Below the pieces are notes generated by a model. The model was given only the letters and a program-made list of their open reading frames with translations. It searched no databases and was not told where the DNA came from. The position numbers and the translations under genes were made by a program. DNA of 64,000 bases from Utricularia gibba (Eukaryota; Streptophyta; Magnoliopsida; Lamiales; Lentibulariaceae), in contig CM007990.1 in NCBI GenBank assembly GCA_002189035.1, forward strand, positions 1,612,001 to 1,676,000. Reading direction: 5' to 3'. Positions 15,561 to 62,234 of the stretch are shown one piece after another (position 1 is the first letter of the stretch; the number at the start of each line of letters is the position of its first letter).

Positions 15561-16368
15561 TCAGTTCTTCGCGGGAGCTTTGAACCTGCTGATGATGAAC
15601 TTCGCGAACTCGACGAGCTCTTCGGTCTGGGGCAAAACATCCATCACCGCGGGTTCGGAGGTGAAATATTGAGCCCATTGGAACAAATTCGGAGTCTTGA
15701 TCTCATCGATGAGCTTCAGACCAGACAGCGCCTCGATGACATCCAACAATTTGAGAAAGCATCCTACCGCAATGTCCAGATATCCGATGGTTTCTCCTCC
15801 GAAGAATTTCTTCCCTTTGCTTATACCCACAAAAGCATTTTCCAACAAAGTAACTCCTTCTGTGGCTCCCTCTACGTTCTTCCTCAACTCCTCTCCTTCC
15901 GTCAGCATGATGCCTCTAACAGATGGAAACCACTACAACAGAGCAAACATCAATGAGCGTGGCAAGTACCACAAAATTAACAAATTCGTACTGTAAATCG
16001 GATTCACACGCACTCCCAGGCATAAGGGCTATTCCAAAATCGTACCTTTTCGTCGATGTAGGAAGCCCAGAAACGGGCAACAGCGCGGTCCTGGGGATGA
16101 GAAGGGAGGATCGGGGTCCCTGGGACCAGGTTTCATCGATGTAGTGAAGAATCACGAGAGATTCAGAGATGGGGACATCGCCGTGGATGAGAACGGGAAT
16201 TTTCTTCGTAACAGGATTGGATTTGAGGAGGAGTTCGCTCTTATCAGGAAAATGTTCCACCAGGAACTCGTACTCCACGGACTTGAGGTGGAGGGCTATG
16301 CATGCCCTCAGTACAAATGGGCTTTGCCTTATACCCAAAAGCTTCACATGTGCCGATTCTGCAGCCAT
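15561..16368 (-). CDS. Tau-class glutathione S-transferase, copy 1 (one frameshift)
   Basis: Exon 1 is 16368-16046 and exon 2 is 15932-15561, with a 113-bp GT-AG intron at the position usual for tau GSTs (after YIDEK). The protein would be about 231 residues, normal for the class. The N-terminal thioredoxin-like domain has RQSPF with the catalytic Ser, and the glutathione-binding block ending in [13 protein letters not shown]. Exon 2 is the helical C-terminal domain with FFGGETIGYLDIA, ending FKAPAKN. Tau GSTs conjugate glutathione to xenobiotics and stress products in the cytosol. The frame breaks in exon 1 at 16113-16116, where a run of four G (plus strand) stands where copy 2 has five; everything after is intact. 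That favours a sequence error or a very recent mutation. Confidence 0.85.
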
Positions 16369-16454
16369 GGAGTTTCAGTTGTGCAAACAAGAGACAGAAA
16401 AAAAAAGACTTGTGACGATATCTCGTTGGTGGGAAGTTGTGTTACCTTGTGCAC

Positions 16455-16499
16455 ATTTATATAGCTCTTCAGAAGGTATGACGTATGCAGTGTCGTCAG
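16455..16499 (-). promoter_or_regulatory. Core promoter of GST copy 1: TATA box and as-1-like element
   Basis: CTATATAAATG (minus strand, 16454-16464) is a TATA box about 90 bases before the start codon. Directly upstream lies a pair of TGACG half-sites in inverted orientation (16479-16499). Paired TGACG motifs (as-1/ocs elements) are bound by TGA-type bZIP factors and drive induction of tau GSTs by salicylate, auxin and xenobiotics. Confidence 0.6.
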
Positions 16500-16564
16500 A
16501 GTAATGAATTTGAATTATTATTAAATGTAATTGTGGTTTGCAACCGCACCATTTTGTGCGTCAT

Positions 16565-18925
16565 TGTATGCATATGTTGGAAATTAAATAATCTTATACT
16601 TTATAATCTTGATGGATGCAAAATTCTATAGGTGCTGCAAATCTATAAGTTTTTCCCATGAAAATAAATTTGTAAGTTTATAATTCCAATTAAAATAGAA
16701 ACATTTCCTAATATAAAATGTTTAACATAATCATGATAATGGATAACAAGTATTTACAATGTATTTTTCAAAATACAAGATTCAAAATAACTTCACTCTT
16801 AGTCTTAAGCTAATCTAATACCACCATATAAAATCGATAATTTAAATTAGATAATAATGCAGAAAGTAATAATCTAAAGTAATGCTTTAAAATAATTTAA
16901 AGTAAAATTTGGTGAACAAACACCAAATTTTAATTTACAATTTGACAATCACAAACTCAAATAACCTAAGTTTACTTGAGTCATTTACTACATTTTGAAT
17001 TACAATACTATATAGTTTCCTAATCCATTTTACGTGTAGATCTACCAATTTATAAAATAAATAAAATTAGTTCTATTTTAGAATATCGCTTTATATGATC
17101 ATTTCAATTCTTTGATTTACTTTCAAATTGAGTTTCTAAGTTGTGCTACTAATTGATCTACCCCTTAAATCTATCTGAAGTATGACAAAACAAATAGTAA
17201 TTATGCAAAAATTATGATCAAAACTAAAACTTTGACTCATAACACCATTGTATATTAAGATATCTCATAAATCTATCAACACATAATAAAAAGTAAAATC
17301 ATTACTTTATAAATTAAAATGAGAATAATATCATAGACATAATTTGAAACAAAATAATAATACTGAATTTTCAATAACATAAAGTTGAATAATGTTAAGA
17401 TTGTTCCCTTAGTTAATGCTTCGGTCTAAGAACAAGAACGCTAATTTGAAGTTTGCTTTTTGGTGTGGAGTTGCATCCTCTTCAAATCTCCTTCTTCATC
17501 CATCATTCTTCCTTGGTTTTCTCTTTCGTTTTTCATAAAAATTCTCTATCCTGAAGAAAATGTCTTTTCATTTTATCCTCCCCATTTTCTAAGATAGTTA
17601 TGATTGTTGATATCTGGAAAAGAGAGTGTCATTTGTTCGCGGTTGGCTAGTGTGCACCTCAACTTGATGCATGTAATTTCAGTTCAATTTATTACTAATC
17701 TTATTAATAATACTCAATTAAATTTTAATAAAACAAGATGAATTCAATTAATGAATTTAGTCCATTTTCACATATAAAATTAAAAATAATATAAACGATA
17801 CCTAAAATAATAAAAACTACACAAAAAAATCTAAATTATAGTAAAATATAATGATTTTGTATTATAAAAATGCTAATAAAATATGCGACATCAGTTTGCC
17901 TCTATAGAAGATGGAAGCTAGGAGACATAACTACTTATTGAATGAACAAAATGAAATATGAAGAATTATCTGGCTTGAATGGGAGAAATGTAGACAAGGA
18001 TTTGCCAAGGGGGGATTATGCATCTCGTCTATATGGGGAAAAAATAGATCGCTCTTAACTCTTTGCTAACTGATGATGGAGATTTTCAGCTGAAAAAGAT
18101 GCATTATGAAGGAGCGTCGTAGTCTCAATTACTGAGAAGGAAAGAAGAATGAACATAGATGAAGACCATCTGCAGAAAAAATTATGGTGAAGGATTGTAA
18201 GTGTGAACAAAGAGTGTAGCTATCTTGGACTACATTTGGTATCAAATATGCAATGGAAAGTTAGGAATGGAAAGAAAATTGGATTTTTTTTTAATAGAAG
18301 TAGATATCCACAACTATAATGATTCTAAATCGTAAAGACATCCTTATTTTGCAAGTAAGGAATCTCATCTTCACTATCAATTCATCCCATAAAGTATTGT
18401 TCTCGAGAACATCATTCTCAAGGTGCTTGCTCCTGAAACTCAGATTATTTTCTATTTTCTTGAACAAATTTCTGTATCTTTTATCACTTTCTAATCATAT
18501 AAATCTAAAATTTGAGCTATGTGAAGTTGATGTTAGAAAGAAGAGATTTTTGACAATTCTCTAGCCTCTATCTATTTGAGCAAATTGCACATTATGCCTA
18601 AGGACTTTAGTACAATAAAACTGAGGATATTAAATTTTTGGGTGTCTAAATGTATTCCTATTTAAATGAGGTGTGAAAATATTGAATATTACTAAATACA
18701 TATGCTAGAAAATTGCCAAATATTGAAATAGGGAATTGAATCTGAAATTTCAGTAGCATACCCATGTGAGTTTGGATGCTGGTGTGCTGTTCCGAGGAGG
18801 CCCATTCCAGAATTAGTAAAATCATTTTATAAAAGGGTGTCACACCTGCCTGCTCACATTCGAGATTTGGCCCATTTGATTTTGGAAATTGGTTAATTGA
18901 TTATGTCAAATGAACCTTCAAACCC
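16565..18925. other. Spacer between the two GST copies
   Basis: AT-rich sequence in which I see no gene. It separates the two duplication units and has no recognisable transposon ends. Confidence 0.6.
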
Positions 18926-19067
18926 ATACAACTAACACCAATACCCACTCACTGACAGAAACGGAAAAGCCCAACATACAAATGTAACGAGAAGAACCGT
19001 GGAAAGAAGTAATACAGCAGATACAGATACAGCCCGTGCACATTCAAATCCTCTCACCAGTAGCAAC

Positions 19068-19874
19068 TCAGTTCTTCGCGGGAGCTTTGAACCTGCTGAT
19101 GAGGAACTTAGCGAACTCGACGAGCTCCTCGGTCTGGGGCAACAGATCCTTCACCGCGGGTCGGAGGTGAAATATTGAGCCCATTGGAACAAATTCGGAT
19201 TCTTGATCTCGTCGATGAACTTCACACCAGACAGCGCCTCGATAACATCCAACCATTGGAGAAAGCATCCTACCGCAATGTCCAGATATCCGATGGCTTC
19301 TCCCCGAAGAATTTCTTCCCTTTGCTTATACCCACAAAAGCATTTTCCAGTAACGCAACTCCTTCTGTGGCTCCCTCTACGTTCTTCCTCAACTCCTCTC
19401 CCTCTGTCAGCACGATGCCTCTAACAGATGGAAACCACTACAACAGAGGAAACATAAATGAGCTCGGCAAGTACAATTGAATCAACAAATTCGTACTGTA
19501 AATCGGATTCACACGCACTCCCAGGCATAAGGGCTATTCCAAAATCGTACCTTTTCGTCGATGTAGGAAGCCCAGAAACGGGCAACAGCGCGGTCCTGGG
19601 GATGAGAAGGGAGGATCGGGGGTCCCTGGGACCAGGTTTCATCGATGTAGTGAAGAATCACGAGAGATTCAGAGATGGGGACATCGCCGTGGATGAGAAC
19701 GGGAACTTTCTTCATAACAGGATTGGATTTGAGGAGGAGTTCGCTCTTACCAGGAAAATGTTCCTCGAGGAACTCGTACTCCACGGACTTGAGGTTGAGG
19801 GCTATGCGCGCCCTCAGTGCAAATGGGCTCTGCCTTGTGCCCAAAAGCTTCACTTGTGCCGATTCTGCAGCCAT
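19068..19874 (-). CDS. Tau-class glutathione S-transferase, copy 2 (two frameshifts)
   Basis: Exon 1 is 19874-19551 (108 codons, fully open) and exon 2 is 19437-19068; the intron is again 113 bp. Exon 1 shows RQSPF with the catalytic Ser, and [15 protein letters not shown] for glutathione binding. Exon 2 starts with WFPSVRGI and ends [11 protein letters not shown], like copy 1, but breaks frame twice. At 19302-19305 there is a run of four C, and at 19158-19160 a run of three G (plus strand). In each case one more base restores alignment with copy 1. Between and after these points the sequence stays protein-like. Expected function is cytosolic glutathione conjugation. Whether the gene is dead or misread is unresolved. 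Confidence 0.83.
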
Positions 19875-19959
19875 GGAGTTTCAGATATGCAAATCAAAGA
19901 CAGAAAACACAAGACTGGTATTCAGGTTTCGTTGGTGGGAAATTGTGTGACCTTGTGCA

Positions 19960-26700: not shown

Positions 26701-29085
26701 AAGCGGAATTTGCTTAAGCATTCTTTAGCAACCTTAGAACAAGTGTATTCTATTATTTCAAACATCACCTGTGCGCGCTCCCCATCATACTTGTATTCAC
26801 AGGTGAACTCCGTATCCTGGAACTTCTCCACAATTTCAGATACTCCCTTTGTTGGCTTAGCTAACATGGGGCCAATAGGAATACCAGGCATAAAGCCACA
26901 TGTATTTGGCAGATTCCACACGCCTTCATTAAGAAGAGCAGGAATTATTTTTTCATAGACTGGAACAACTGAACATACTTGTTTCACAACCCTTGCAGCC
27001 TAAAATACAGAAAGGAAGCTTTTCATCAATCAAATCAATATGAACATCACATGAAGTAAACCATGTAGAGAAGCCTCCACCAAACAAATGATATACAGGT
27101 AAATAGAAACCACCAATTCTATTCAGCAGTTTAATCCATCGGTCTCAGAGGAGCCAAGTTGCTTACTTCTTCAAAAGGATTATCAAACTTTGCTATAGGA
27201 GATGAATGCTTTTCGGAATATACACTAGCATGTCCTAGGGCCGCTAAAAGAGTTTGAACTGCCAACCCAATACGCAATTTCGCCTGAAAATATCAACGAT
27301 CCACAGATTATGATCTGTATCATGAACCAAATAATGTAAAACATGTATTTACCGAACCTGCAACAAACGTATCAGGTACTGAGGCTCACAATCAGTGGCC
27401 GCAACTAGTAGCCCCTTTATATGGTTCTTCTTTTTCTCTTGGCTATCTTTTCCAGATTCCTGCACACATTGCACGTGAAACATATAAATAACTATATTGA
27501 AGACTATTATTTATTAGGTATGAGATAAAACTATAATATAGGCAAAAAAAGTTTCTTATAAGTATAAGAGAAACAGCAGCCTGCCTAGTGTAGACAACAC
27601 CTATCGCATCCCTAAATAAAATATTCTCCTATGCCTAGAGATCCAGCTAATTAAACATCAACCGATCAGGGTAATATCAACCTCAGTTCAATATTAAGCA
27701 TCCATTCCAGTATAAGTATAAGAAGCACAGTAAACAGAGCACCTTTGCTATAAGCCGAAACGTAGAAAAAACTTTTGCAACAGTTAATGCCTCTGGCTTG
27801 CGCATCAAAGGCTGGGATGACCGACAGGCTTGAGCAACAAGGCCCAAATCTCCAAGCTTCTGCATTTGTTTAAATTCAAAGAAACGTTGACAACCAAGGA
27901 AACACTGGTAAAGAAAAAACCGCACAAGCTATTTAGACGTGTAAAAAGGAAGCTTCAGCACCATGACCATATTCAAGAATACACATCCTAAGGAATGGTT
28001 TGTTAACCAAAGAATCATAATAAGTGTGTGAGCACTCACAATAGAAAATTCTGAAAAAAAAAAGAAGTGTATGCGGTTCAAACATGAAGCACCTAAGTAC
28101 AGCATGCAGGACCTGTAATAACCACCTTGTATTCCCTCTTTATATGTGCTTCTGTGGTACCACAAGCCTCTGCAAGGGCCTTAATAATTGAAGCATCCCC
28201 TATACCAAGCTCCAAGCCCTCATGAGCTGGTGCGATCCTATTTGACAAAAGGTACATAGTAGGCAATAGATCATCTGGCGTGGTCTCAATAACTGTCCTT
28301 AGCATATTGCAAGCAATTTCGGTGATCACAATTCTGCCTGACTCTTTCGATATGGCATCAAATGTCTTAGCCACAAACAAGAAAGGCACCCTCTGTCCTT
28401 CCCAATACGCTGCTCTTTTTACATCGAAATTCGAAGCTTTTACCTTCAATTCTTCCATACTCTCATCTGGGGTGATCGATACTCTTCGCTTCTTAGTCGA
28501 AACTGATTCTTCATCCGAATTGGAATCTTTAACCAGCATTGGCTTAGAATTTGGCGCCTTCTTATTTTTCACGGGTGCCGGGCCGTTATCTACAGCCTGC
28601 AACTCAACACCGTCGCTCTCCCGACTACGCTTGGAAGACTTCTCAACATGGGTATCCCCATTACACTCAGCAGTAATAATATTGGACACCTCTATGCCGT
28701 TTCCAGTTTCATCTGATGCGGAAAGGCCAGGGTTACTACCTGTAGACCTCACATCGATGTTTTTCGGAATCTCCACAGAAGCCTTACGTTTTTTTGGAGA
28801 CGACTCCTTTCCCTTGGCCGACTGCAATCGAGATGGGCTTGTCTTTTTCTTGGAAGCATTAGACATCAGAACATCAAACACCGAGGGGCGAGACGAGGAC
28901 ATTGCCTTCACAATAGGGTTTCTCTCAGCGAAGCAATTCGAGGGTTTTGAAAAGACGAAAAATCTGAGACCAAACTGGCGCTTTCCCACGAAATTCACAG
29001 GGAACGAAACGACGACAGAGCGGCTACAGCAACACCGGAGCGAAAACATTAACCGGTCAGACAAATGGCGGGAGACTTGCAACAC
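23778..29085 (-). CDS. LIG1: ATP-dependent DNA ligase 1
   Basis: Seventeen exons, all GT-AG, give 849 residues: 29085-28126, 27859-27743, 27459-27358, 27283-27167, 26999-26769, 26686-26592, 26451-26364, 26103-25972, 25700-25588, 25289-25188, 25105-25044, 24940-24869, 24761-24688, 24592-24536, 24304-24227, 24011-23934, 23849-23778. Exon 1 holds an Arg-rich, acid-poor N-terminus (mitochondrial presequence-like), then [15 protein letters not shown] at residue 62, and Lys/Arg clusters such as SPKKRKAS that fit nuclear import. The DNA-binding domain follows. The adenylation motif KYDGER has its nucleophile at Lys502. Later motifs include CEGLIIKTL and WLKLKKDY, then the OB-fold and an acidic C-terminus (VVDEDED). 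The enzyme seals nicks in replication and repair. Length is near that of Arabidopsis LIG1 (790), with a longer N-terminal linker. Confidence 0.97.
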
Positions 29086-31338
29086 CTTTGTTAGCTCACC
29101 CTTGCATAGCTATCCTTTTTTTTTTTTTTTTCCCTTTTTTGCGACCAACGGTATTTTCAAAAATAATTATTTATTAAAGCTTTCAATAATTATCTTAATT
29201 ATAAAAATGATTCTCAATTTATAAACTATGCATTGTTAAAAAACCAAGGCCTATACAACCTACACTATGTTTTGTTTTATTGTATTGCTCATTGAAAATG
29301 AATGATGATCAAGACGTTTTAAATGAAAAATTCTATAAATATGTTATGTATTTATCTAAAAAATGATTTTCTAAAATTTTAATTCCTAAATTTTAAAATT
29401 ACATCATAAGTCATTTAATTAACATTTTTTTGTAAATATTTTGACCTCGAACTTATGAATTTGTATATTTAATCTTTCATATTATCAAAACTAATTAATT
29501 TTGATCCATAATGCCATTTTAATAATGCATCGTTGTTAATAATATTTACAATTTTCATTTTTATTCTTCTGATGGTCTTACGCTTGATGACACCAAAATC
29601 ATGAAATGCGAACGGTAATATAATTCTAGTAAAAGATTTTGTTTCAACAAAATTCATATACAAATATGAAAAGTTTTATTATAAAATTTATTGGATGTGA
29701 AATCAGAATTAATTCATAACGTCACGAATCAGCTCACGTCCTAAAAATTCAAAAAAACAGTTTGAACCTTCTCTGAATGATTTTGACAATTTGAAGTGTT
29801 TTTTTGCAATTATGAAACTTGCAGATTACTCTTTTTATATTGATTGAAATTTGCGGGTTTTTTTTTGCAATTTTCACAAAATATTATATTATGAACTTTT
29901 AGAATATAGCTTGGATGGACAAATGAGAGTATTATTATATGCTCGGACGGTAACCCTAGACCAACTAATGAGATATTGCGTTTTACAAAACATATAGTAG
30001 TGCAGAGTCATTAAATTTTGTAAATTCATTATATTAATTCTATATTAATAATATATTATTTTTTCATAAAATATTTTAATTATATCAACAATGCACAAGT
30101 TAAAAAGACGATTACCGAGTATGCGAAGAGATTTTCTTCAAATTACAAAACCTCTTGAGCTCTTCCTGTAACAAAGTGATTGCCACAACATGATACCTCA
30201 TTCCTTCATTTCATGAATTACTCAAAGTGATTGACGAGGGTTTCTCAAGAATCCATTAATGTATCGCGGAGTTGTATAGCCTAAATTGCTTCATTTAAAT
30301 TCATTTTTATAGATATTATTTGATCAACTATATCCTTAAAACAGTAAATAAGTTGAATTAAAATGTATTAATATAGAAAATATTAGTAAAGCCTAAAAAT
30401 TTTTCCAATTTGTCACATCTGTCTCCTAAAAAATTCTTCCTATATTTTCTTCTTAATTGTTGATATTTTTGCCTAAAAAAAATTACATCCTCGACTTGTT
30501 CACTCATTTTTATTATTGTGATTCTATCTCATATTACGTGTCATCGATTTTTAATATATAAATTATGTTTAATTTATTCTAAGATATTGTTTTTAAACTC
30601 TAGAAAAGATATTAGAAAACATATTATACACTTAATTATTTATTTATTTTATATTTAATTAAAAATATAATTAATATTAAAATCATCAAAATCTCCAACA
30701 TTGCGTGCACTTCATTATGTAAAATTTAATTATAAATAAGATTACAAATTAAGAAATTAAATGGTAAATTTAAAACGTCTCATAATTTTTTTCAAATATT
30801 CTAGTTCGATTTTTAAAATTATTGTATATCCAGTTTCATTTTCTTTAAAAATAATTAGCATATAAGTTAATTCTAATTCAAGCATCCATATAGATGAAAA
30901 CTGATTGGGTAACTCTCGCGGATCTAAAGTTGAAAGAGGAAATAAATATACTCTGACAAAGGTAATTTACAAAATCAGCCGAAGTTGAAACTATACTGTA
31001 CGGTAGGTTGTCCTCGCCACGTTTACCCTGTTTTTGTGGAGAACACCTGTCTATTCTCGTATCTTCCATTCATTGTTTCTTTCACTCTTTCCGTTTTCGA
31101 TAGTACAATCAATCATCGTTTATTATGGTCATAAGCTGCGAAGGTTTTGTAGAAACGCCATTTGTGAACACCTGATTTTGTGGTTCCGATCGTGAAATTT
31201 GGTTACCTTCGTTTCAAGTTATTTTTCTTGTTTGCAACAGAGACTTCTTGGGATCATTTGGCTTCTGCTTGTGCTAAATTCAATTTCTTCACTTGCTTAG
31301 GAATTAAGATTCGTCTCCGAGCACTATCTATCCAGCAT
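29086..31338. other. Divergent intergenic region between LIG1 and the GH79 gene
   Basis: LIG1 and the glucuronidase-like gene point away from each other. Next to LIG1 is a poly-T tract (about 29117-29135). Sequence from 29200 to 30850 is very AT-rich with no supported gene. The last 450 bases are less AT-rich and should hold the promoter and leader of the downstream gene. Confidence 0.6.
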
Positions 31339-33751
31339 ATGGGATTTTGGACACTGTCTGTGGTATTTTTGATCTTCTACCCTGGCATTTTGGCTCAGAA
31401 ATTTGAAGAGGCTACACTTGTCATTGACAAGAATGCAGCTGTTGCTGAAACAGATACCAACTATATTTGTGTCACTCTTGACTGGTGGCCTGAAGATAAG
31501 TGCAACTACAAAAGATGTCCTTGGGGCTTAACGTCGGTGCTGAATCTTGTAAGGATTTCGTCAATGAGATTTTCTTTATGTGAGAAAACATGTTTTTTCC
31601 TGTTGAAGAAGATGGGTGTCTCGTTTCTTTTGACAGAATCTGTCTCACCCTTATCTCGGCAATGCAATTCTAGGTTTGTCTGCACAATCCAGTTAGAATT
31701 TTTTATGTTGGTAGTGGGTGTTGTTTCCTTGTTTTTATAAATATTTTTTTGCACCCTACTGCAGTTTCTTACTTTTTTTTGTGCTAAACAGCTTTCAAAA
31801 ATTTGAGAGTACGAATTGGAGGTTCCTTACAAGATAGTGTAATATATGATGTGGGAAATTTTACATCCGAATGTGGGTTATTTAAGAAGCAATGGGGAGG
31901 GCTGTTTGGATTCACACCTGGATGCTTAAGGATGGACAGGTGGGATGAGCTAAATAACTTCTTCAAGAATACAGGGTAAATATCAATACTTTGTGTTTGG
32001 ATATTTTTTATGTAATACTATTGTCTCTTTAATCACGTATGAATTTTCAAGAATCCCGGCAGCATTGCTGAATTTTTTTTCATGCAATTTCGAGCAACCA
32101 TTTGTGATATTTAGTGGCCGAATTGTCAGACTTCAATGTCTTTACTCGCCTTTTGATTTGCAGGGTGATAGTTACATTTGGACTTAATGCTCTGTATGGA
32201 AGACACCATGTTCTCAGATTTTGGGGAGGAGATTGGGATCCTAGCAATGCTCGCAATTTTATTGCATACAGTATATCCAAGGGATATCATGTGGACTCTT
32301 GGGAATTTGGTATGAAAGCCTACTACTCACCTTGCTGCTCCCTTATATGACATATGACTTCTCAATCAAATCAACCTCCACATGGATATTAACAGGTAAT
32401 GAGTTATCCGGTTTTGGAACTGGTGCATGCGTGGGAGCTGAACAGTATGGAAAAGATACAAGCACTCTGAAGACTATGCTTGATGAGTTGTACCGTGGTT
32501 TAAGCACCAGACCCTCAATTGTGGCACCTGGAGGCTTTTATGCAAGTTGGTGGTTCAATGAATACCTTCAAGCCTCGGGTCCAGATGTTGTCAGGATAGT
32601 TTCTCATCATCTCTATACTTTGGGACCGGGTGAGTTCTAATACAATGATGTATCAGATAAAGCATGGTTGGCCTTGTGTTTCATACACATATACATTGTC
32701 CAGGGAATGCCCCCAATATGAAGTCTAGAATTCTAAATCCAAAGTACTTGGATAGAGCTGCTTCTACTCTGAAGAATGTTAATAAAACTATTGAAAAGTT
32801 TGGACCTTGGGCTTCCGCTTGGGTTAGTGAATCTGGAGGATCCGTAAACAATGGTGCCATGGGTGTATCAAACACTTTTTTAAACAGTTTCTGGTAACCT
32901 ATCTCCTTCATTTTTTCCTAAAGCACTGCATATGGTTTATGAAGGATTGATGAAGTTGTCTTGTCTCAACAAAGGTATCTCGATCAGCTTGCATTGGCTG
33001 CCAAGTACAATACGAAAGTCTACTGCAGACAAACTCTGGTTGGTGGGTTCTACGAGCTTCTTGATCAAAACACATTTGTTCCCAACCCGGATTATTACAG
33101 GTAAGTTTGAATGATTAAACATCAAAGCCGAACTATAATTTTAACTTAGCATCGAGTGCATATGCTTCTTGTATATAGTGCACTTCTTTGGCATAGACTC
33201 ATGGGGAGACGAGTGCTTTCAGTTAAAACCTCTGCTTCCAAATCTCTGCGAGCTTATGCTCACTGCGCAAAAGACAGAGTTAAGCTGCCATTTTGCTGAT
33301 TCTTTGCATTTCTCTTCATTCTCCACGTTTTGTTGATCTGATCATCCTCCTTGTTCAGGATGGCATATCCTTGCTTCTCATCAACCTAAGCGACGAGACG
33401 ACGTACGCTCTCGAAGTCGAGTCCACAAACTACATTCAGCTTCTCCAAGAACGTAGAAGAGACATCAAGAAAAGATCTTTCATCCACAGTCTGAAGAAGC
33501 TGATCGCCTTGCTGGGAAACAGAGCCTCAGATGGAAGTGTGCCCAGGGAGGAGTACCATCTGACTCCCCAGAATGGCGATCTTCAAACCAAGATCGTCCT
33601 TCTGAATGGAAAGCCGCTGCAGCTAACAGAGAATGGAGCGATCCCCAGTCTGGATCCTGTTCTCGCAGACATGAACGCTCCTCTCACAATTTCTCCTCAT
33701 TCCATCAAATTCGTGGTGCTCCCCCACTTCCACTCCCCTGGTTGCAAGTGA
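31339..33751 (+). CDS. Heparanase-like beta-glucuronidase, GH79 family
   Basis: Nine exons with GT-AG introns give 539 residues: 31339-31548, 31637-31673, 31792-31975, 32164-32309, 32396-32629, 32704-32893, 32975-33100, 33179-33278, 33359-33751. The start MGFWTLSVVFLIFYPGILAQ is a signal peptide; the frame is open further upstream, but this Met gives the usual length and secretion signal. Family blocks include CVTLDWWPEDKCNY and VRIGGSLQDSVIYDVGNF. The catalytic acid is Glu195 in EFGNELSG and the nucleophile is Glu313 in VSESGGS. Plant GH79 enzymes remove glucuronic acid from arabinogalactan proteins in the apoplast or vacuole. It most resembles heparanase-like proteins 1/2 (GUS1/GUS2 type). 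All exons are intact. VPS41 follows 607 bp downstream on the same strand. Confidence 0.95.
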
Positions 33752-34358
33752 TTCCTGTCCTCGGTGTGTTTATTGTGTGAGATATGCAGTTTATAAAATA
33801 CAAATACAAATTCTATATAAATTAAAATTCTAATTAAATTTTTCTAATGTTGTTTTTAAATATCGTTGTATTAAAAGAGAAAATTTCTAATAAAGCACTA
33901 ACTTCAAAAGCAAAAAAGGCTTACAAATTTTGTAGAAATTATTGTTTAACAAATAATTACTATCACGTATTTGATATAAAATTTTATATTTAAATTTATA
34001 TTATAGATTCTTAAAATGACTATAATAAATAGATGGGGAAAAAATGAAATAAAACAATAATATTATATTTTAATATGATGAGTTTGTATTTCATCATTAA
34101 TAAAACATTATATAAAAGAATTGTTTGAATATCACATTTATGATACTTAAGATCAATAGTAGTAAATATAATGTAAATGCAGTTTTTTGGAACACGTCAC
34201 CAATGAATAAAATGTTTTTATAATTAAAGATGATTACCATAAAAATTCGTCGAATGAAAATAGGGAAAATAAAGTAATTATAGGAAAGTTAAATCGCCGC
34301 CAATCGGTTATACAGATTGCCGAGGCGTTGATTCAATTATTTTGCTCTTTGGCCGGAG
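33752..34358. other. Short intergenic spacer
   Basis: AT-rich spacer holding the 3' end of the GH79 gene and the promoter of VPS41. No other gene is visible. Confidence 0.7.
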
Positions 34359-37300
34359 ATGTCGTCCGTCTTATCGGAGAACGGCGTGGAAAGGGAGGAT
34401 GAGAGGGAGGAAGGATCGGAGCGGGAAACCTCCGAGGTTGAGGATGCAGAAGGGGATGAGGAGGAGGAGCCCAGGCTGAAGTACCAGCGGATGGGTGGCA
34501 GCGTGCCGTCCATCCTCCAAAGCGACTCTGCTTCGTGTATTACAGTTGCCGAGCGCATGATCGCACTCGGTACCCTCGGCGGCTCCGTCCACATTCTTGA
34601 TTTTCTCGGAAACCAAGTGAGATTCTTTCCTATCTTTGCTTGGCGTTTCTTTAGCCTTGCTGGGAATTAGGTGGAGTGCTTTTTGTAATCATCACAACGG
34701 ACTGAGAGTTTCACATCTCTTAGATTGTGAAAAGGGTGGTTTTCAGTGTTTTCTGTCTACGCCCGCATTACTGATCATTGCAGAGCCATAAGATTAACAT
34801 AATCAATACTGGTCAGCATATTCACAGGCAAGCTTCCTGTAGATGGATTGTGGAGTGGATACAATGTAGTTACGGTCCTGGTAAAGAATTAACATGTGGG
34901 GTTCATGTGGAAATTAACCTTTGAATGAGCAGGTGTGATTTAGCTCAGAATACCTAAGGCTTTATCATGCTTCTTCGGTAAACTTATCCTTCCAGATTTC
35001 AATCATTGACGGGCATTTCATATGAAGGAATTTCTTCTTCTACAGGTTAAAGAATTCATTGCTCACTCGGCTGTTGTAAATGATCTGTCTTTTGATATCG
35101 AAGGTGAATTCATTGGAAGCTGTTCCGATGATGGATGTGTAGTAATTAATAGTCTTTTCTCTGAGGAAAAAATGAGGTTTGAGTATCATCGCCCCATGAA
35201 GGCCATTGCTTTAGACCCTGATTATGTGAAAAGGTCTTCAAGAAGATTTGTTAGCGGTGGCTTAGCTGGAAATTTATATTTTAACACGAAGAAGTGGATG
35301 GGCTATCGTGACCAGGTATGACATTGCAAAGGATCCAATATTTTTAGACTTTGAACTTGAAATTGTTTTGATTCCATTTTGAGTCTCCAGGTTTTGCACT
35401 CAGGCGAAGGTCCAATTCATACAGTGAAGTGGAGAGGTAGTCTGATAGCTTGGGCCAATGATACTGGTGTTAAAGTATATGATGCTGTCAATGATCGACG
35501 AGTAACATTCATTGAAAAGCCTAGAGGAAGTCCACATCCTGATCTTCTGCTCCCTCATTTGGTTTGGCAGGTTTGATAAAACTTATATAAAATGTGATCT
35601 TTTGAAAAAAAAAATAGTATGAACTGGATACAATAAGGACAGAGTTTCTGCTTTCTCAGATGCTTTATGCTTCATTCAGGATGATGCACTGCTGGTTGTG
35701 GGGTGGGGAACATGGGTTAAAGTAGTTTCAATAAAAAGCAATGTCAATCAAGGCGCCAATGGGACATATAAGCATATCCAAATGTCTGGCTTGAAAAGGG
35801 TTGACATTGTCGCATCTTTCCAAAGCACCTATGCCATTTCAGGAATCGCACCCTTTGGTGATGCTTTGGTCATTCTTGCATATGTCCTGATTGATAAAGA
35901 TGGTGAAAAGAATATCAGTAGCACTCTTTCTTCACTGCAGGTACTTTTTCTTCTGATGCTCAAATGCTTAGTGATAATGTGTTTTCTATTTGTTTTTTCA
36001 GCGTTGAGTAACTCATGGACTTCCATTGTATGTTGTTTGAATGTTACACGGAATAGTCCCTGATCTAATCAGGTCCCATTCCTTGCTTTTTAAAATTTTT
36101 GGCTTACAGATCTCCACTAATAGTAAATGATTTTTTAAAAGTTTTTTTAAATTTAGGTTATTCGTGTTTTTTTAAAAGTGCTTTCTCTTTTATCACTCTT
36201 TTCCATGTTTGCTGTATTTTATGGGCATAGTGGCACTGGTTAGAATGCATGTGGATCGTGCTTAGGTTAGGATTTGTCTCCAGGGAAATGCACAGCGACC
36301 AGAAGTGCGTGTTGTCACTTGGAATAATGATGATCTTGCAACTGACGCGCTACCCATACATGGATTTGAACATTACAAAGCTAAAGATTATTCCCTTGCT
36401 CATTCTCCTTTCTCAGGTTGGGTGTGTGCTTTTCAAAAAAAGATAAATCCAGATCTTTTATTTATTCTGATGAATTGGTCATAGGTAGCAGCTATGCAGG
36501 AGGCCAGTGGGCCGCTGGTGATGAACCATTGTACTATATTGTCTCTCCTAAAGAAGTAGTCATTGCCAAGCCAAGGTTATTACCCTCATAATTGGTTCCT
36601 TAAACTTTTTCCCTCTGCCTTTTTAAGTTAAACACAGTATTTATAAATGGCTCATTGGAAATAATTTTAATGATCATAGAATTGTACACACGTGCCATCT
36701 ACCAATGCATATTTAATTTGTCAACTTTCAAAGCTCTCCATGTTAGGGATGCAGAAGATCACATTTCTTGGCTTGTTCAACATGGATGGCACGAGGAAGC
36801 CTTGGCAGTAGTGGAAGCTGGTCAGGCAAGGAGTGAGCTCCTTGATGAGGTACCATTTCTAAACTAGCATGAATAAAAACTGATTTTCATTAACCTGAGG
36901 TCTGTTGTTGCTGTGTTGTCATGTCCTATGATCACTTCCACGAAGTCATGACTTTTTAAAGAATCCATTTCCTGCAGTTGGGATCTAGGTATCTTGATCA
37001 TCTTATTGTGGAGCGCAGATATGCATTTGCAGCATCTTTGTGTCCAAAATTACTGAGAGGGTCATCCTCTGCCTGGGAAAGGTGCTACAATTTTGTTCCA
37101 CTTTCAAACATTTACTAGTTGAAAAATTATCCCTATTTTTTTCGTATTAACTAGGATTTGGACACCTATACAGGTGGATTTTCCATTTTGCGCAGCTTCG
37201 TCAACTTGTAGTCTTAGTTCCCTACATCCCGACAGAGAATCCAAGGCTACGAGATACTGCCTATGAGGTATCTTTCTGGATTTTGAACCGAGTATTTGTT

Positions 37301-43870: not shown

Positions 43871-45017
43871 ACACAGAAAAGCAAATGTTTTATATCAATG
43901 GTTTCAATTTTGAAAGCATAAAATCATAATAAGAGTATAATTAGTACATGAGTCTTCCATATTTAAGCCCATCAATAAGCTGGTGAATGATGGTTTAGGA
44001 ATGATATAAAAATCAATATTCTTCAACAAACAATTTTGTTGAAAAAATGATGTTAAATAACTATCATTGAATACTAATGGATGGTAAAACCATTTCATTC
44101 CACCACTTTCATCCAAGGCAATATAATTCACATAAACATTGATACAACTAATAACAATTGGTAATTTCATAAATGAACAAATAGTGGAGCAAAGACACAA
44201 AGCTCTATATTACACATTTAGAACGTGTATCACATTTAGAATGTGTATCACAATATACTATTTCATTTGAAATAATAATCCCCCCCTCCACGAAAACATC
44301 CTTGGGGTGACTATTATAGCATCCATCTAAACTGAAGTAATAAAAACAAATAGATTTCAAAACCTTCAAATCATGTCCATTTTAGGCAGTTACGTAAACA
44401 AAATCTGAGATAGTAAAAAAAGAGATTCAACAAACATGATTTAGAGATTCAATGACCCAACATTTGTGAAAATAAAAAGATGGATTTTTATTGTCGAAAG
44501 ATGTGAAGAAAACAAGGAGAGGAAGTGAAAGAGAAGAAGTTGGCAAGGTGAAGGAAGTGCGGTGGGAGGGATTGCGTAGGATAAGAAAAAATAAAACAGA
44601 AAAAATGTGTGAAAGAAAATAATAAAATAATGAGTACGAGAAGTTTGATAAAAATATAAAAATATGAATTATTATGAGAGATATTTATAAATTTGGGATA
44701 TAAAACGATTTACTAAAAAATATTATTTTCACTAAAAAAACAAAAGTAGTTAAGAATGATAATGAGTTTCCCAGCAATTTTTCATTTCATCAAGTGGACC
44801 TGAATTGTCTCTTCATACTCCAACATAATTATCAATAATTCTGGACATGATAAATATTAGACATCAAACATATCCAACTAAACAGACAATGTAAACTGAT
44901 AGATTTGTATATCAAGACAAATAGTTGGCACGCTTGGAATCATGACCGGGTCTTTGTTCTTTTAAATGGTCAACTTATCCTTAATCAAGACTAGAAACGT
45001 GTGACGCCTCATTGTAT
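43871..45017. other. Intergenic, AT-rich
   Basis: No gene is supported. It contains a short imperfect tandem duplication (about 44213-44250, two copies of CACATTTAGAAYGTGTAT). Confidence 0.5.
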
Positions 45018-47204
45018 TTACATTATCACGCCCCCATAATATTCCTCGAGCCATCTTCCAATGATGTTGGCCTCTGCCTCCCTTTGCATCACCAGCCAAT
45101 TCGGATCATCTGGAGAGGGTGGAACTAGATCCAGGCAATGCGACCCTGCAAGGTCATTCAAGTAATTTCACTCTCGTGCAAAGATAGTCTGGACATGCAT
45201 CTCTTGCAGCTGCACTTGTAAGAATGAGATTGCAGTCTCACCTTCTTCCGTTGTAAGAGCGATTATGGTCTCGGATATGTCACTGAGTACCCTGATGCAA
45301 GAAAAGGAATGTATGTGATTGATATGCATTTTCCGACAAAAAAAGGAGTAGTGAATTTGCATACCCTCCGGTGCTATACGGATCTCTCATTCCATTGGAG
45401 AAGATTATGTTGCTCCCGAATCTCTTCAGTGCCTTTCTGATATCCTGCAAGTTACAAAATGGGATGAAACGTCATCATTCATGAATTTGTGATGGAGAGG
45501 TGGAGCGAGTTTACAGATCCTCCGTAGTGTGTTGTGATCCAGTGGGGGCGAGGCGCCACTCCGTAGACATGAATGCAGTCTCTGATGGTTTGGTTCATAT
45601 CGAAGGGTGGAGATGCGAACATCGTGTTGTTTCCATTTCCAATCGGCATCACCATTTCACTGCAAAACTGTACCCACAAAGCAATCACCTCTTTCTTCCC
45701 CCCTGCAGTAAAATGTCGTGGAGATGGGAGCTTACTTGCCAAGACCAACCCGAGGCGCTTTCTCCAGAGCTTCCGCCGGACGTATCCAGGCAGCTGGAGA
45801 GCACTCCATAGGCTTTGAGTCCGGCCACCACCCTATCGACGAAACTCCCGGGCGCCGGTGCGCCATCGACGGCTTCGCATATTTCCTTTACGGAGAGATT
45901 GGGCGGCTCGTCGTACTGCGCGGCGTCCAGAAAGTAACCTTCCAACACCTCTTTCAGCTCTTTCGCGCTACCCAGCAAACTGAACAGCCGCCAAAAGGAG
46001 CAGCTCAGAGTTCACCAAGGCAAGCAAGTGGGCAGCAGCAGTTGAAGGAATTGGAAATAGCGGAATGCATGAATTGTATTACGTGCATGTGTTGAACTTT
46101 TGGCTGAGAAGTTCAAGGCCACCGGGCATCGATGCAATTCGATCGATTTCGCCCCAGGATTCCTTTATACTGCCGTAGCAGCTTGCACTTGCATCCTGAA
46201 TAGTAATTGTAGCAACAAATACAAGTATACAAAGAGTATAAAAAATGCATATCATTTTGAAAAAAACCTTGAAATTCTTAGAGGCAACGTTATAGTATGC
46301 ATCCTGAGGCGTAAGATCGTCAAAGTAAAGAATGGGGGCTGAGGAGGCGAGAGCCCCCAAAGCAATGTGAGGGTACTTCAGCCTAAACCATGAAGCCAAC
46401 ACTGAAATAGAATAAAGTGAGTATTTTTTTATTAATAAAATGAAATAAATAAGAATGTATTCTTTGAATATTCTGAAAATACTGACTTCCTCCATAGGAT
46501 CCGCCAACAACAATAACGGGAGATTTCTCCGCAGAAAGATCGCGCTTTACATGCAACAAAATCTCTGCGTAATCGGCCAAAGCTTGAGCTGAACCGAAAT
46601 ACCCGCGAGCGGTTCTGCTGTCGAGGGAAATCGTCGTGTTTTCGAACGGATTCGACTCTCCGTAGAACCGGTGCTGAATCGAAAAAAAAAAAGTAAAGGA
46701 TTAAGTTGATAAAAAACCAGTTGGAAATAGGTTGAATGGGAGTTCTCTGATTATCATAAGGGTGTGTTTAGGTCCAATATATCTCGTGTTTTGACATAAG
46801 GAACCAAAATGTGTTACCTCCATGAACACCATGAGGGCCTTGTAACGGTTCGCCATTGGAACGAGAGCGTCGGCGAGGTACAGCTGTGAATCGAGGGAGT
46901 CCTCGGCCCCGAGGAAAGCGAGGATCGGGGAGCTGGGGCCGCCCCAGAAAGAGGACATCACGGCGTACCTCTGTGAGAACACTGCATAACTTTTCGGCGC
47001 GAAGTTGAAGTGGTCGATGGTTTGCTGGTAATAATGCGCGGTGAAGTTGTTGACAACTGAAATGGAGGAAACCCTATTAGGGCTTTTAAGGTGGCGCTCC
47101 TTGCCATGGAAGACAGCGATTTTTGTGATCTTTGCAGGGAGTGCAGATGAATGATGAACAAGAAGAAGCAGTACAAGGAGAAGATTCGATAAAGGGAGCG
47201 CCAT
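45018..47204 (-). CDS. Serine carboxypeptidase S28, lysosomal Pro-X carboxypeptidase-like, copy A
   Basis: Nine GT-AG exons give 491 residues: 47204-46818, 46673-46487, 46401-46268, 46195-46083, 45979-45736, 45667-45515, 45444-45365, 45291-45242, 45145-45018. The start [20 protein letters not shown] is a signal peptide. The family block [11 protein letters not shown] follows. The catalytic triad is visible as Ser188 in GGSYGG, Asp427 in SNGMRDPYS and His452 in SHCLDL. S28 enzymes cut after proline near the C-terminus of peptides, in acidic compartments; vacuolar or apoplastic location is expected here. A second copy with the same exon structure lies 3 kb further on (50160-52611). All frames are intact. 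A minisatellite begins about 55 bases upstream of the start codon. Confidence 0.94.
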
Positions 47205-47259
47205 TTTTGAGGAAGAAGAGTTCTTGAGGATTGGTGAAGCGATGATTCTGAGACTTTAT

Positions 47260-50159: not shown

Positions 50160-52611
50160 TCATTTGCCCCCAAAATAATATTCCAGAAGCCATCCCCCAA
50201 TGATGTTGGATTCTGTCTCCCTCTGCGCCACCAGCCAATCTGGATCGTGCGGCGAGGGTGGAATCAAATCCAAGCAATGAGAACCTACAATGGCATCATA
50301 CACCAGATAGCAAAACTTGGAACAAAAATAATTCATGGTGTAAATGTAACAATTCATCCTCTTTTTATACAATATAGTTCGTTTAAGATAATCAATCTTC
50401 ATGGTTTTATATTCTTTATTTTTGGAAGAAATTATTCATGTAAAATTAGAAAAAATCCCACCATATGAAGAATATAATTGAATCTCATATAACTTACTAA
50501 TGAAGTAGAAGTATAATTTACGTAAAATCATGAAAATTAGATACTAAAACATACAATATCATGTAAGCAAATTATTGGTTGTTACAATAGAGATCCAAAT
50601 CAATTACTTTTATTATATGTTTCTTTTTTCTTTATACATCTTACCTTCCTTTGTAGGAAGAGCAACAATGGTTTTTGATATATCTTCAAGAACCCTACAA
50701 AAGAAAACGAAATGAATTATATTCTTGAAGACTGAAATCAGGCCATGATCTTGCATACCCTCCACTGCTGTAAGGATCCCGAAGTCCGTTGGAGAAGATG
50801 ATGTTACTTCCGAACTTGGCGAGGACCCTTTTGATGTCCTGAGGGATGAAAGAATCCAGTAAACGCTGGAGTTGTAACACATGACTGAGAAACAAATCTG
50901 GCTTACGAATCCGCCGTAGTATGTTGTGATCCAGTGTGGGCGAGGAACCACTCCGTAGGCGTCAATACACTCTTTTATGGTTTCTTTCAAACTGAAGGGC
51001 GGCGATGCAAACATCGTGTGGTTTCCATTTCCGATCGGCATCACCATTTCACTGCAAGACTGCAAAACGAGAGACATAAAAAAGTTGATAGTTTGCAACT
51101 ATTGAAATTAAAGATCTAATAGGTTGGCACAAATATACTTGAAATCTAAATATATAATATATTAGAAAGTTGATAGTTTATAATCTTTAATATATTTATT
51201 ATTTTAATTTCATTTTTCGATGTTACATTGTTGTTCTAATGGCAACAAATAGTTTATGAGAAATAGAAAGCTTACTTGCCATCCCCAACCCAAGTCAGTT
51301 TCACTCGGGTTGATATCGAAGATGGGTAAGCAGCTAGAAAGGATTCCATCAGCTCTGAGTCCGGCCACAACCCGGTCCACGAAGCTCGCGTTTGCGCCGG
51401 CGCCATCCACGCCCTTGCAGATGGTCTTCACCGATAGATTCGGCGGCGCGTCGTACTGCGCAGCCCCGAGAAGGTTGCCTTCCAAAGCATTCTTCAGATC
51501 GGCCGCAGTTTGCAACGGGCTGAAACAAGTAGAAGATGACCAACCTACAATAAAGTAGCAACTTCCAATGCACAAATTCCATTACGTGCATGTGTTGAAC
51601 TTCTGGGTTAGAAGCGCCAGACCAGTCGGTGTGGATGCAATTCTGTCTATTTCACCCACGATTCCTTTATACTGTGGTAGCAACTTGAACTTGCATCCTG
51701 AATTAAAAAAAATATTCATTTATATGCATATATAATTCCAAAAATAAATATAAATACTGCCTTAAAATCTTTAGAGGCAACGTCGTAGTACGCATCCTGG
51801 GGAGTAAGACCTTCGAAGTAAAGAATGGGGGCTGAGGAGGCGAGAGCCCCCAAGGCAATGTGGGGATATTTCAATCTAAACCAGGAAGCCAACACTGAGA
51901 AAGAGAATCAGCATTCAACAAAATAATCATTTGAGAATTTAATGTAGTTTTAAATACGGACTTCCTCCATAGGATCCACCGGAAACGATGACCGGAGATT
52001 TCTCAGCGGAAAAAGTTCTCTTTATATGCAACAGTATCTGTGCGTAGTCAGCCAGGGCTTGAGCAGAACTGAAGTATCCACGGCCAGTTTTATTCGCGAG
52101 AGAAGCCTCCATGCTTCCGTATGGATTAGATTCTCCATAGAACCGATGCTGACAAAGGCGGTGCAAGATTATATGGTTTTTAGAATACATAATATTCGAT
52201 AATGGGAGGAGTTAAACCAGGAACCTCCATGAAAACAATGAGGGCTCTGTAGCGTTGTGCGATCGGGGTGAGACTGTGGACGATGAAGAGCTGCTGGTTC
52301 AGGGGCGCTTCGGCTCCGAGATAAGCGATAATCGGAAAGTCCGGGCCGCCCCAGAAAGAGGAATTCACTGCGTATGTCTGCCGGAAAACTTCGTAGCTTC
52401 CGGGTGCGTAGTTGAAGTGATCGATGGTTTGGTTGTAATGATAGAATGTGAAGCTCCTGGAATAGAAATCGAGGGAATGCTTGTAAGGGTTCCTGTAGAA
52501 GGTTTGTCTGCCATGGAGTACGGAATGCTTGGTGATTTTGGTGGGGAGTGACGAGGAATGGTGAACAGAAACAAGTAGGAGGATGAGAAGATACGATAAA
52601 GTGGGTGCCAT
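50160..52611 (-). CDS. Serine carboxypeptidase S28, lysosomal Pro-X carboxypeptidase-like, copy B (one frameshift)
   Basis: Nine exons mirror copy A almost base for base in length: 52611-52225, 52148-51962, 51894-51761, 51697-51586, 51519-51276, 51059-50907, 50838-50759, 50694-50645, 50284-50160. The start [12 protein letters not shown] is a signal peptide; it was chosen because exon 1 then equals copy A (129 codons), although the frame is open upstream. The triad is kept: [21 protein letters not shown]. Exon 4 has one base fewer than copy A: a run of three C (plus strand, 51655-51657) makes a TAG two codons later. One more base in the run restores frame. The end of exon 3 uses either a GC donor or a GT donor three bases further. 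The rest is intact, so the gene may be functional if the break is an error. Confidence 0.87.
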
Positions 52612-58144: not shown

Positions 58145-58458
58145 ACGTGGGTGCAGGCGCGTCATTAATATAGATACGAGTGCACAAATATGGATACGGT
58201 AAATTTAAAATAATTCTATTAGAATAATATATTTAATTATCATTTATTATTTTATAACTAATAAATTAGATTAATTAAAAGTCAATCCTAAAATTGTCAA
58301 ATACACTACAAAAAGTATTATTAAAAAAGAGTACCAATCCAATCATCAAAAAGGATAAAACTAAACGATGGATGATGATCAATAAAGTCGTAAAAATGAT
58401 TTAATATTTTTAATTTTTAATAACAACATTATATTGGGACGTACCTGCACACCCACGT
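58145..58458. mobile_element. MITE-like element with imperfect terminal inverted repeats
   Basis: The left end ACGTGGGTGCAGGCGCGTC and the reverse complement of the right end, ACGTGGGTGTGCAGGTACGTC, agree apart from a 2-base indel and two substitutions. They enclose about 310 bp of AT-rich, non-coding sequence. No target-site duplication is evident at these limits. Superfamily is not assigned. Confidence 0.4.
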
Positions 58459-58479
58459 ATCGGGTACGCACCCGATACG
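58456..58479. repeat. Perfect 10-bp inverted repeat with 4-base loop
   Basis: CGTATCGGGT and ACCCGATACG flank ACGC. The stem is GC-richer than its surroundings and overlaps the right end of the MITE-like element by three bases. Confidence 0.85.
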
Positions 58480-59424
58480 CCCAAAACACAAGTACGAGTG
58501 ATATGCAGGAAACGGAATGAAGAGCGCATAGTAAGATGCGTCTACTCCAGAAACAACACCCGACCCTCGAGAATTAATACGTTGAGAGAGTGGGATATTT
58601 GGTGGGTCTGCTCGAAAAAAGAAACAGCTCTGCTAGCGACTTCTTTCCAAATTCAAATCCTTTCATGTTCTCCATCACATCACGTGCTAGCGACTCAGCA
58701 GCAGCACACCAGCTCCCGCGCTGGCATGGCATGGCATGGGAGTTGGATGATTGATAAATGAAAAATTTAAAATGTTATAAAATTTTAATTTCACGTAATA
58801 ATATTATTTATTTTTAAATTAAAATTACTAAAAACTATGTGTTATCAATAATTGATTGACAGTAATACCTGCCCTCAAAGTTATCCCAAGAAAGGCATAT
58901 AGCAGCCATGCGTGGAGTAGAAGCTCACCTTGCCACGCCAATTAAGACAAAGGCATTATTTGTCGTCCTGTTTAGTTAACGAATACATTATTTAAAAAAT
59001 ATATTGAAAATAGGCATTTTTTTGAAGCAATTTTTTTTGAATAAATATGAAAAAAGAAAAGAAATGATCAAACAATAGAGTATGTAGGGGACGGCGTAGC
59101 AGATCAACTGCCAGTGGAGACGGGTTCCGAGTTTTTGAGCGGAGGAATTAAATGGAAATATTGGTACAACATGGGATCCGTGGCGTACAATCCCGGGAAG
59201 GCCGCATTTACAAGTGCCAAGTAAACTGCTGCCGGATTTCAATTCAGACTGGGTATCATCCATCCTCCGCCGTTGCTCCTCGCGGGACTATTGACTTTTC
59301 ATTCTTTTCGTGTGTATGCAAGGCATAGATACAGGGGCGGTTCATAGTTGTTTTCGGGGACATACTCTTGGTAATCTGTTTGTTGGAATCAAAGCGGAGG
59401 AGAAAGACAGGTGTTCACTCAGAG

Positions 59425-62234
59425 ATGCTGCCGGCGGCGATTTGGGTTGTTGTACCGTTTCTGTTTACGATAGCGCCGGCGGCAGCGGTGGGTCTTGGAG
59501 GGGAGAGATTGACTTTTAATCTAGAAAGGGTAGACACCATGGAATGGAGCTAAATCAACTCAGAGACATGGACCGTGTTAGACGCGGCAGATTCTTGCAG
59601 CAATCTGCTGGTGTTGTTGAGTTTCCTGTCTCCGGTTCCTATGATCCCTACACTGTCGGGTATGAACAAGTTTTGGGTTGAAACAATATTGCAACTTTTC
59701 CTGCGAATTCGGTGTTACAAATGGATTCGATGGGTTTGCTTTTGTTCTCCTGATGGAACTGATTTCATTGACTTGGTGGACTTTCAATTTCTGGATGAAT
59801 CGCATCCGATGTATCATGTTTTTGATGAGTTATTGCTTGCTCTTTTTTTTTGTTGGAGATTCACTTGATTTTTGCGTTTGAGATCTGTGTAATCTTTGAT
59901 GTGTTTGTGCAATAGATGTTGAAGTGCAGGAATATGTCAAGATCATTGATGATTTTCTTTTATGATTCTTCCTCATCACACCCTTGCCGTTCATACCTTT
60001 CTTTAGTACCCACTCCTGGAATTGATTTATGGGGTTCTTTTTGGAGATATTGAGAACCTTAATGCTTAATGTTGTCTCTAGGCTATACTATACAACAGTT
60101 AACTTGGGGAACCCTCCAAAAGAATTCTACGTACAGATAGATACTGGAAGCGATGTGTTGTGGGTCAATTGTGTTCCCTGTTCTGGGTGTCCAAGATCAA
60201 GTGGACTCCGGGTGAGTTCATCCTGAAAAAGTTGTTTAATTTTCTTCTAATTTGGAAATATGATCGTTGATATGGTTATTGCCAATTAAACAGCTTCAGC
60301 TCGAGTTTTATGATCCCTCGAGCTCATCAACTTCTGGTTCGATTTCGTGTAATGATCAAAGGTGTCTCTCCGGAGCGCAGACAACTGATTCCATTTGTAC
60401 CCAGGGTCGGTGTTCATATGTGTTTCAATATGGTGATGGCAGTGGAACCTCGGGTTATTATGTATCTGACATCCTCAACTTTAATACTGTTGTCGGAAAT
60501 TCATTAACTTCCAATTCTTCAGCTCCTGTTGTTTTTGGGTAAGTTTCACTGCCTGCTGTTAGTAATTCAAGCTTACTTTTTATTATGTTCTATCCTGAAC
60601 TATCAACCACGTTTCCTTCTCATTTTAGATGTAGCACTGCAGAGACAGGAGACCTCACAAAGTCTGATAGAGCAGTTGATGGTATTTTTGGTTTTGGCCA
60701 GGCGAAACTATCGGTGATTTCTCAGCTTTCATCCCGGGTATCACTCCAAGAGCATTTTCTCATTGCCTGAGTGGTCAAAGTAGCGGCGGGGGGATTTTAG
60801 TTCTTGGCGAGATCGTGGAGCCAAATATAGTTTTCACACCACTCGTGCCCCAACAGTATGTCCTTGTCCTGCTTAAATCATTATGTTAGATGTGCTGCTA
60901 GCCAAATCTTCCTGCTGAGGTGTATGCAAATATTTGAACAGCATGTTCGGGTGAAAAGTTCATGCATAGGTTTTTGAATCTTTTTTATATAAACTCGGAC
61001 CTCCCTTTGCAGGAGATCTTGAATTGATTAATGGGAACTTAAAACTGCTAACATTCATCTAACTGGAGATTATTCTTATTTACTCATGAGGATCTGCTCA
61101 TCTTATTTCTTTAGGCCGCATTACAATGTTGCTCTTGAGGGGGTGTCCGTAAACGGGCAGATGTTAAGTATCGATTCTTCCGTGTTTGTGACATCACAAA
61201 ACCAAGGAACGATCATTGATTCTGGGACAACCTTAGCATATCTACCGCAACAAATTTTTGATCCTTTGTTTAGTGCAGTAAGTGAGAGTGTTCTTATTTT
61301 AGTGATTAAAGTCCTCTAGTTACATCATCAGATATTCGTCTTCCTTTGTGTGTTCTCTGCAGATTTTGGGAAATCTCCCTGAATCAGTTCAAACTACTAG
61401 CCCCAATGGAAACCAGTGCTTTATAACTACTTCCAGGTTCTCATCCCGAGATATATATATACGTATATGTATTTTATGTGTCAAAATTGAACTCTTGTTC
61501 ATTTGATTCTGTAGCCTATCCGACACTTTCCCTTCCATTTCATTTCACTTTGCCGGCGGAGCTGCAATGCAACTGAATGCCCAGGATTATCTTTTGCAGA
61601 GCACTGTTGTATGTTGGCATTCTCATCTTCTGCATTTAATCTTCTTATGCAGTTTTCCGATCCTATGGTTAATTTGGGCTCTCCATTCTTATCTCAATTC
61701 TGTTTTATTTTTTCTCGATGAAGAGTGGAGCTACGATCTGGTGCATGGGATTTCAGCAATCTCAGGGTCAAGCATTCATTATTCTTGGAGGTGTGAGTTT
61801 TATCAGCAAACTGATATTTAATCTCTGCAGCATTTAGTTCTCATTGTTGAACAAGTAATCCTCCGTTTTTCCTTCCTTAGACCTCGTTTTGAAGGACAAG
61901 ATAGTCGTATACGACTTGGAAAGACAGCGCATCGGATGGGCCAATTATGACTGTAAGTTTCCCCAAACAAAAACGCATTCTCTAATCTGTGCAATCTGCA
62001 AAGGATATGGAAGTAGCATTGTCTTTGTTTATAAACCTCGCCTTTCATGGTGGCTCAGGCTCATCGCCGGTGAATGTCTCGACGAGCCGGAATGGGACGG
62101 AGTACGTGAATCCAGAACGACCCACCTCCGGTAGTTCCACCGGCATCCAGCCACCATATCTGGTGACTCCATTCCTGGCTATGGCTCTTCTGTTGATCCA
62201 CTCAGCATTCTTTGATGCTTCCCCATTCTTATGA
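59425..62234 (+). CDS. Pepsin-like (A1) aspartic protease, secreted, A36/A39-like (two frameshifts)
   Basis: Ten exons: 59425-59659, 60082-60211, 60294-60538, 60629-60855, 61115-61277, 61363-61436, 61515-61608, 61724-61790, 61881-61952, 62059-62234. Exon 1 encodes a signal peptide ([20 protein letters not shown]), then a propeptide with [16 protein letters not shown] and [16 protein letters not shown]. The two catalytic Asp are in [10 protein letters not shown] (60140) and [11 protein letters not shown] (61218). The Cys pattern and [14 protein letters not shown] are typical of plant A1 proteases. The C-terminus is hydrophobic ([19 protein letters not shown]), as in GPI-anchored A36/A39, which act at the plasma membrane in pollen. 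The frame breaks at GGG runs in exon 1 (59528-59530) and exon 4 (60736-60738); one more G in each restores family-like sequence. All other exons and phases fit. Confidence 0.88.

What the first reader, a model, noticed from the sequence alone, without database searches (positions are those of the whole stretch)
15561..62234. Six frameshifts in four genes are all G/C runs one base too short
Breaks occur in GST copy 1 (16113-16116), GST copy 2 (19158-19160 and 19302-19305), S28 copy B (51655-51657) and the aspartic protease (59528-59530 and 60736-60738). In each, adding one base to a run of 3-4 G or C restores the frame and the family sequence, and all other exons, phases and catalytic residues are intact. 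Random pseudogene decay would also give substitutions, stops and indels elsewhere. The pattern points to homopolymer under-calling in the assembly, so calling these genes pseudogenes may be wrong.
Basis: partly seen in the sequence, partly recalled or inferred. Interest (0 to 1): 0.62.

Follow-up and report, generated by a model that had tools for sequence, protein, structure and literature searches.

The report
Assembly drops bases in G/C runs
Six apparent gene-breaking mutations in this plant genome window are most likely places where the genome assembly dropped one letter from a short run of G or C, a fault that also breaks transcription-factor and HSP70 genes elsewhere in the same assembly, so these genes should not be called dead.

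Summary
An intron- and frameshift-aware alignment of the four genes finds exactly six frame breaks, each one base missing at a run of 3-4 G or C, with no stop codon or other shift. Sister copies in the same assembly are whole: S28 copy A, the aspartic protease on contig C451, and three GST copies.

In the same genome, 10 GRAS transcription-factor genes and 2 cytosolic HSP70 genes hold 19 frame breaks. All 19 are a missing base, none an extra base; 16 touch a G/C run of 3 or more (5.3 expected, P about 3e-7) and 10 a run of 4 or more (1.5 expected). None of the 12 has an internal stop. Redundant contigs differ mainly by single-base deletions. Codon evolution past the breaks is constrained: dN/dS 0.12-0.16 for the protease and S28.

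Conclusion: systematic G/C-run under-calling, probably in an unpolished PacBio assembly; size and contiguity fit Utricularia gibba (inference). A known kind of artefact. No reads were available, so base-level proof is missing.

The parts
15561..16368 (-). GST copy 1 (tau-like, two exons), one frame break
   Evidence: 230 aa aligned over the full 231-aa relative L006, 85% identical, one missing base, no stop
16113..16116 (+). GGGG where GST2, L004, L005 and L006 have five
19068..19874 (-). GST copy 2, two frame breaks
   Evidence: 229 aa aligned, 89% identical, two missing bases, no stop
19158..19160 (+). GGG where L004 has four
19302..19305 (+). CCCC, one base short; the same site is short in GST L002 and L007, five long in L005 and L006, GGAGGA in GST1 and L004
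50163..52611 (-). S28 peptidase copy B, one frame break
   Evidence: 481 aa aligned, 69% identical to copy A, no stop
51655..51657 (+). CCC where S28 copy A has CCCC
45000..47205 (-). S28 peptidase copy A, intact control (approximate bounds)
59425..62234 (+). Pepsin-like aspartic protease, ten exons, two frame breaks
   Evidence: 474 aa aligned, 88% identical to the intact C451 copy, nine introns, no stop
59528..59530 (+). GGG at the first protease break; the C451 copy reads [10 protein letters not shown] in frame here
60736..60738 (+). GGG (in CCCGGG) at the second protease break; the C451 copy reads SSQGITPRAF in frame here

Best explanation
The six breaks are errors of the assembly, not of the plant: the consensus reports short G/C runs one base too short. 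When a long-read consensus cannot settle the length of a G or C run and takes the shorter length, an exon loses its frame and a whole gene looks dead. GST1, GST2, S28 copy B and the aspartic protease are most likely intact genes. Shown: the breaks, their form and sites, intact sister genes, and the same excess elsewhere in the genome. Inferred: the sequencing chemistry (PacBio, HGAP, not polished with short reads) and the species (Utricularia gibba).
For: Six of six breaks are missing bases at G/C runs, with no other lesion. In 12 genes elsewhere 19 of 19 breaks are missing bases; 16 touch a G/C run of 3+ (5.3 expected, P 2.7e-7), 10 touch 4+ (1.5 expected, P 2.9e-7); those genes have no internal stops. 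Two cytosolic HSP70 genes, 94% and 96% identical to an intact one, are broken this way. In intact GRAS genes no called G/C run exceeds 6, while four broken sites have a called run of exactly 6. Redundant contigs: C316 against C412, 9.8 kb, 5 substitutions and 11 one-base indels, all short in C316; C422 against C414, 3.7 kb, 7 substitutions and 19 one-base indels, 17 short in C414; a real paralog pair has 310 substitutions and 47 indels. Protease dN/dS 0.14, 0.12-0.13 past the breaks; S28 0.20, 0.16 past the break. Three GST copies break at one and the same site.
Against: No reads or RNA evidence. The redundant-contig deletions hit A/T as well as G/C runs, so they show a deletion bias but not the G/C bias. 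Two redundant contigs (C304, C241) carry the same short sequence in an HSP70 gene, which a systematic error or a real mutation would both give. The 12 genes were chosen because they were broken, so rates per gene are rough. One published PacBio project found its residual deletions mainly in A/T runs (PMC6005640), so a G/C preference is not universal.
Confidence: 0.91

Rival explanations
1. The four genes are true, recent pseudogenes; one-base deletions in G/C runs are ordinary replication-slippage mutations.
For: Slippage favours runs, and tandem GST and protease families lose copies often (own knowledge); GST2 and L002 share a break.
Against: No stop, larger indel or second kind of lesion in any of the four. 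Same pattern in GRAS and HSP70 genes. Nineteen deletions and no insertion. If GST2 and L002 had inherited one inactivating break, their later changes would be neutral, but they are 16 nonsynonymous to 17 synonymous, which rejects neutrality (P 0.001).
Confidence: 0.05
2. Mixed: most of the six are assembly errors, but one or two (for example GST2 site 2) are real mutations.
For: At GST2 site 2 the earlier codons may have been GGA GGA, so the lost base may be an A and not part of a run; the same site is short in L002.
Against: L007, a distant copy, is short at the same site, and L005 and L006 have a five-G run there, which fits recurrent under-calling.
Confidence: 0.03
3. The runs are truly short and the genes are rescued by slippage during transcription or translation.
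For: It would explain constraint and the lack of stops.
Against: The breaks share no further motif, the runs are only 3-6 long, sister genes of the same families read straight through, and routine rescue of this kind is not known for plant nuclear genes (own knowledge).
Confidence: 0.01

Closest known systems
Residual homopolymer indels in PacBio long-read assemblies (PMC5964635, PMC6005640)
   Same: One-base indels at homopolymers that give false frameshifts and mostly vanish after short-read correction; residual errors are indels far more than substitutions.
   Different: Those papers report A/T runs or runs over 14 bp; here the breaks inside contigs sit at called G/C runs of 3-6.
Recent plant pseudogenes in tandem families
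   Same: Frameshifted copies next to intact ones.
   Different: Real pseudogenes collect stops, larger gaps and mixed indels, as the GRAS relative L066 does (two stops); none of that in the four genes.

Membership tests
Assembly homopolymer under-call | The break is a missing base at a homopolymer | tested here: met
   6 of 6 in the window; 19 of 19 missing base and 16 of 19 at G/C runs of 3+ elsewhere
Assembly homopolymer under-call | Hits genes under constraint, without other lesions | tested here: met
   No stops in the four window genes or in the 12 others; dN/dS 0.12-0.20 for protease and S28
Assembly homopolymer under-call | Genome-wide, not confined to one locus | tested here: met
   GRAS, HSP70, UDPGT and GST genes on many contigs
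Assembly homopolymer under-call | Redundant assembled copies of one locus disagree mainly by indels | tested here: met
   Two contig pairs; the indels are not limited to G/C. A third pair is identical over 901 bases
Assembly homopolymer under-call | Independent reads show the longer run | not testable with these tools
   No reads or transcripts on hand
Pseudogene | Stops, larger indels or relaxed constraint | tested here: not met
Utricularia gibba PacBio assembly | About 100 Mb, megabase contigs, HGAP | tested here: inconclusive
   G000 is 100.09 Mb in 516 contigs, longest seen 8.5 Mb; published U. gibba: HGAP, 88x, N50 3.4 Mb (PMC5793159). No species marker was tested

The most novel reading that the evidence does not exclude
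The short G/C runs are real in this plant: a small genome under a G/C-run deletion pressure that breaks many conserved genes, with expression kept up by some unknown rescue.
Probability: 0.02. Interest if true: 0.75.

Novelty: not a real feature. Interest (0 to 1): 0.2.

Why it matters
Pseudogene counts, gene-loss claims and protease or GST family sizes drawn from this assembly will be off wherever an exon holds a G/C run. Roughly a quarter to a third of the GRAS genes found appear split (rough count). Short-read polishing would settle it.

Tried and rejected
Letting any base be added at any place to best fit the relative overfits diverged codons; it was dropped for an interval method with position-matched controls. 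A Fisher test with a hand count of 13 events: the count was not derived by a fixed rule, so it is not used. First alignments of GST and protease loci in the wrong range or strand (in part, 14) were replaced. A redundant contig over the four genes was looked for; only paralogs were found. The UDPGT table is mostly partial-domain hits; two split genes were read by eye and not counted. The main U. gibba genome paper is not held.

Full report
WHAT WAS CHECKED. The window is 64 kb inside contig C2 (6.19 Mb) of a 100.09 Mb, 516-contig plant genome. I wrote a protein-to-DNA aligner that allows frame shifts and GT-AG introns and aligned each broken gene to an intact relative from the same assembly. 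GST1 has one shift, GST2 two, S28 copy B one, the aspartic protease two. Each is one base missing, each placement interval touches a G/C run of 3-4, and there is no stop codon and no other shift. S28 copy A, the protease copy on contig C451 and GST copies L004-L006 are whole. For the exons concerned the chance of touching a G/C run of 3 or more is 0.22-0.28 per site, about 3e-4 for all six.

A QUALIFICATION. At GST2 19302-19305 the lost letter cannot be assigned with certainty. L005 and L006 have a five-G run there, but GST1 and L004 have GGA GGA. GST copies L002 (just left of the window) and L007 (on C451) break at exactly this site too. If GST2 and L002 had inherited one inactivating mutation, their later differences should be neutral; they are 16 nonsynonymous to 17 synonymous, which rejects neutrality (P 0.001). 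The branching order of GST1, GST2 and L002 is unresolved.

GENOME-WIDE TEST. GRAS genes mostly lack introns, so a match split into abutting pieces in different frames means a broken frame. The search gave about 30 whole domains and a group of split ones. Aligned to whole GRAS relatives, the broken ones carry almost only missing-base events and, apart from L066, no stops. In the 10 best-conserved GRAS genes plus two cytosolic HSP70 genes (94% and 96% identical to an intact one) there are 19 events: all a missing base, none extra. Position-matched controls expect 5.3 to touch a G/C run of 3 or more; 16 do (P 2.7e-7). They expect 1.5 to touch a run of 4 or more; 10 do (P 2.9e-7). Intact GRAS genes (40.8 kb) show no called G/C run longer than 6, while four broken sites have a called run of exactly 6. 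The genes were chosen because they were broken, without regard to where the break lies.

DIRECT ERROR MEASURE. Two small contigs duplicate parts of large ones. C316 against C412, 9.8 kb: 5 substitutions and 11 one-base indels, all short in the small contig. C422 against the end of C414, 3.7 kb: 7 substitutions and 19 one-base indels, 17 short in C414. A true paralog pair (C120, C2) has 310 substitutions and 47 indels in 5 kb. So the assembly does lose single bases, though in these places (which I take to be thinly covered) A/T runs suffer too. A third pair (C304, C241) is identical over 901 bases and shares a break; that does not separate error from mutation.

CONSTRAINT. The window protease against the C451 copy has dN/dS 0.14, and 0.12-0.13 between and after the breaks; S28 copy A against B 0.20, 0.16 after the break. 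A long-dead gene would not look so; a very recent death could.

MECHANISM. Most likely the long-read consensus reports G/C runs one base short. Published cases show false frameshifts from uncorrected PacBio homopolymers (PMC5964635; PMC6005640), although there mainly in A/T or long runs. The genome fits the HGAP assembly of Utricularia gibba (88x, N50 3.4 Mb; PMC5793159), an inference from size and contiguity only. Species, chemistry and lack of short-read polishing were not shown.

VERDICT. Observation confirmed, interpretation supported; an ordinary artefact with practical weight for annotation. The missing proof is read evidence at the six runs.

Noticed in passing
L002 and L007 (C2:1601869-1602827; C451:2117372-2118066): Two more GST copies are broken at the same site as GST2 site 2; copies L004, L005 and L006 are whole.
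   Followed up: yes
C451 about 2.112-2.118 Mb against the window: A duplicated block: the protease, GST, UDP-apiose/xylose synthase and a DUF1635-like gene all have counterparts there, protease dS about 0.5, as expected of an old genome duplication.
   Followed up: partly
Contigs C316, C422, C241: Small contigs nearly identical to parts of C412, C414 and C304: redundant assembly pieces.
   Followed up: partly
Window 7886-8684, 27686-29109, 31788-33748, 34332-39903, 62817-64000: By eye: an R2R3-MYB, a DNA ligase 1-like gene, a heparanase-like (GH79) gene, a VPS41-like gene with a RING end, and UDP-apiose/xylose synthase; MYB and synthase exons read in frame.
   Followed up: no
L066 (C244:2105200-2106400): A GRAS relative with two stops and mixed indels: looks like a true pseudogene, a useful contrast.
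   Followed up: no
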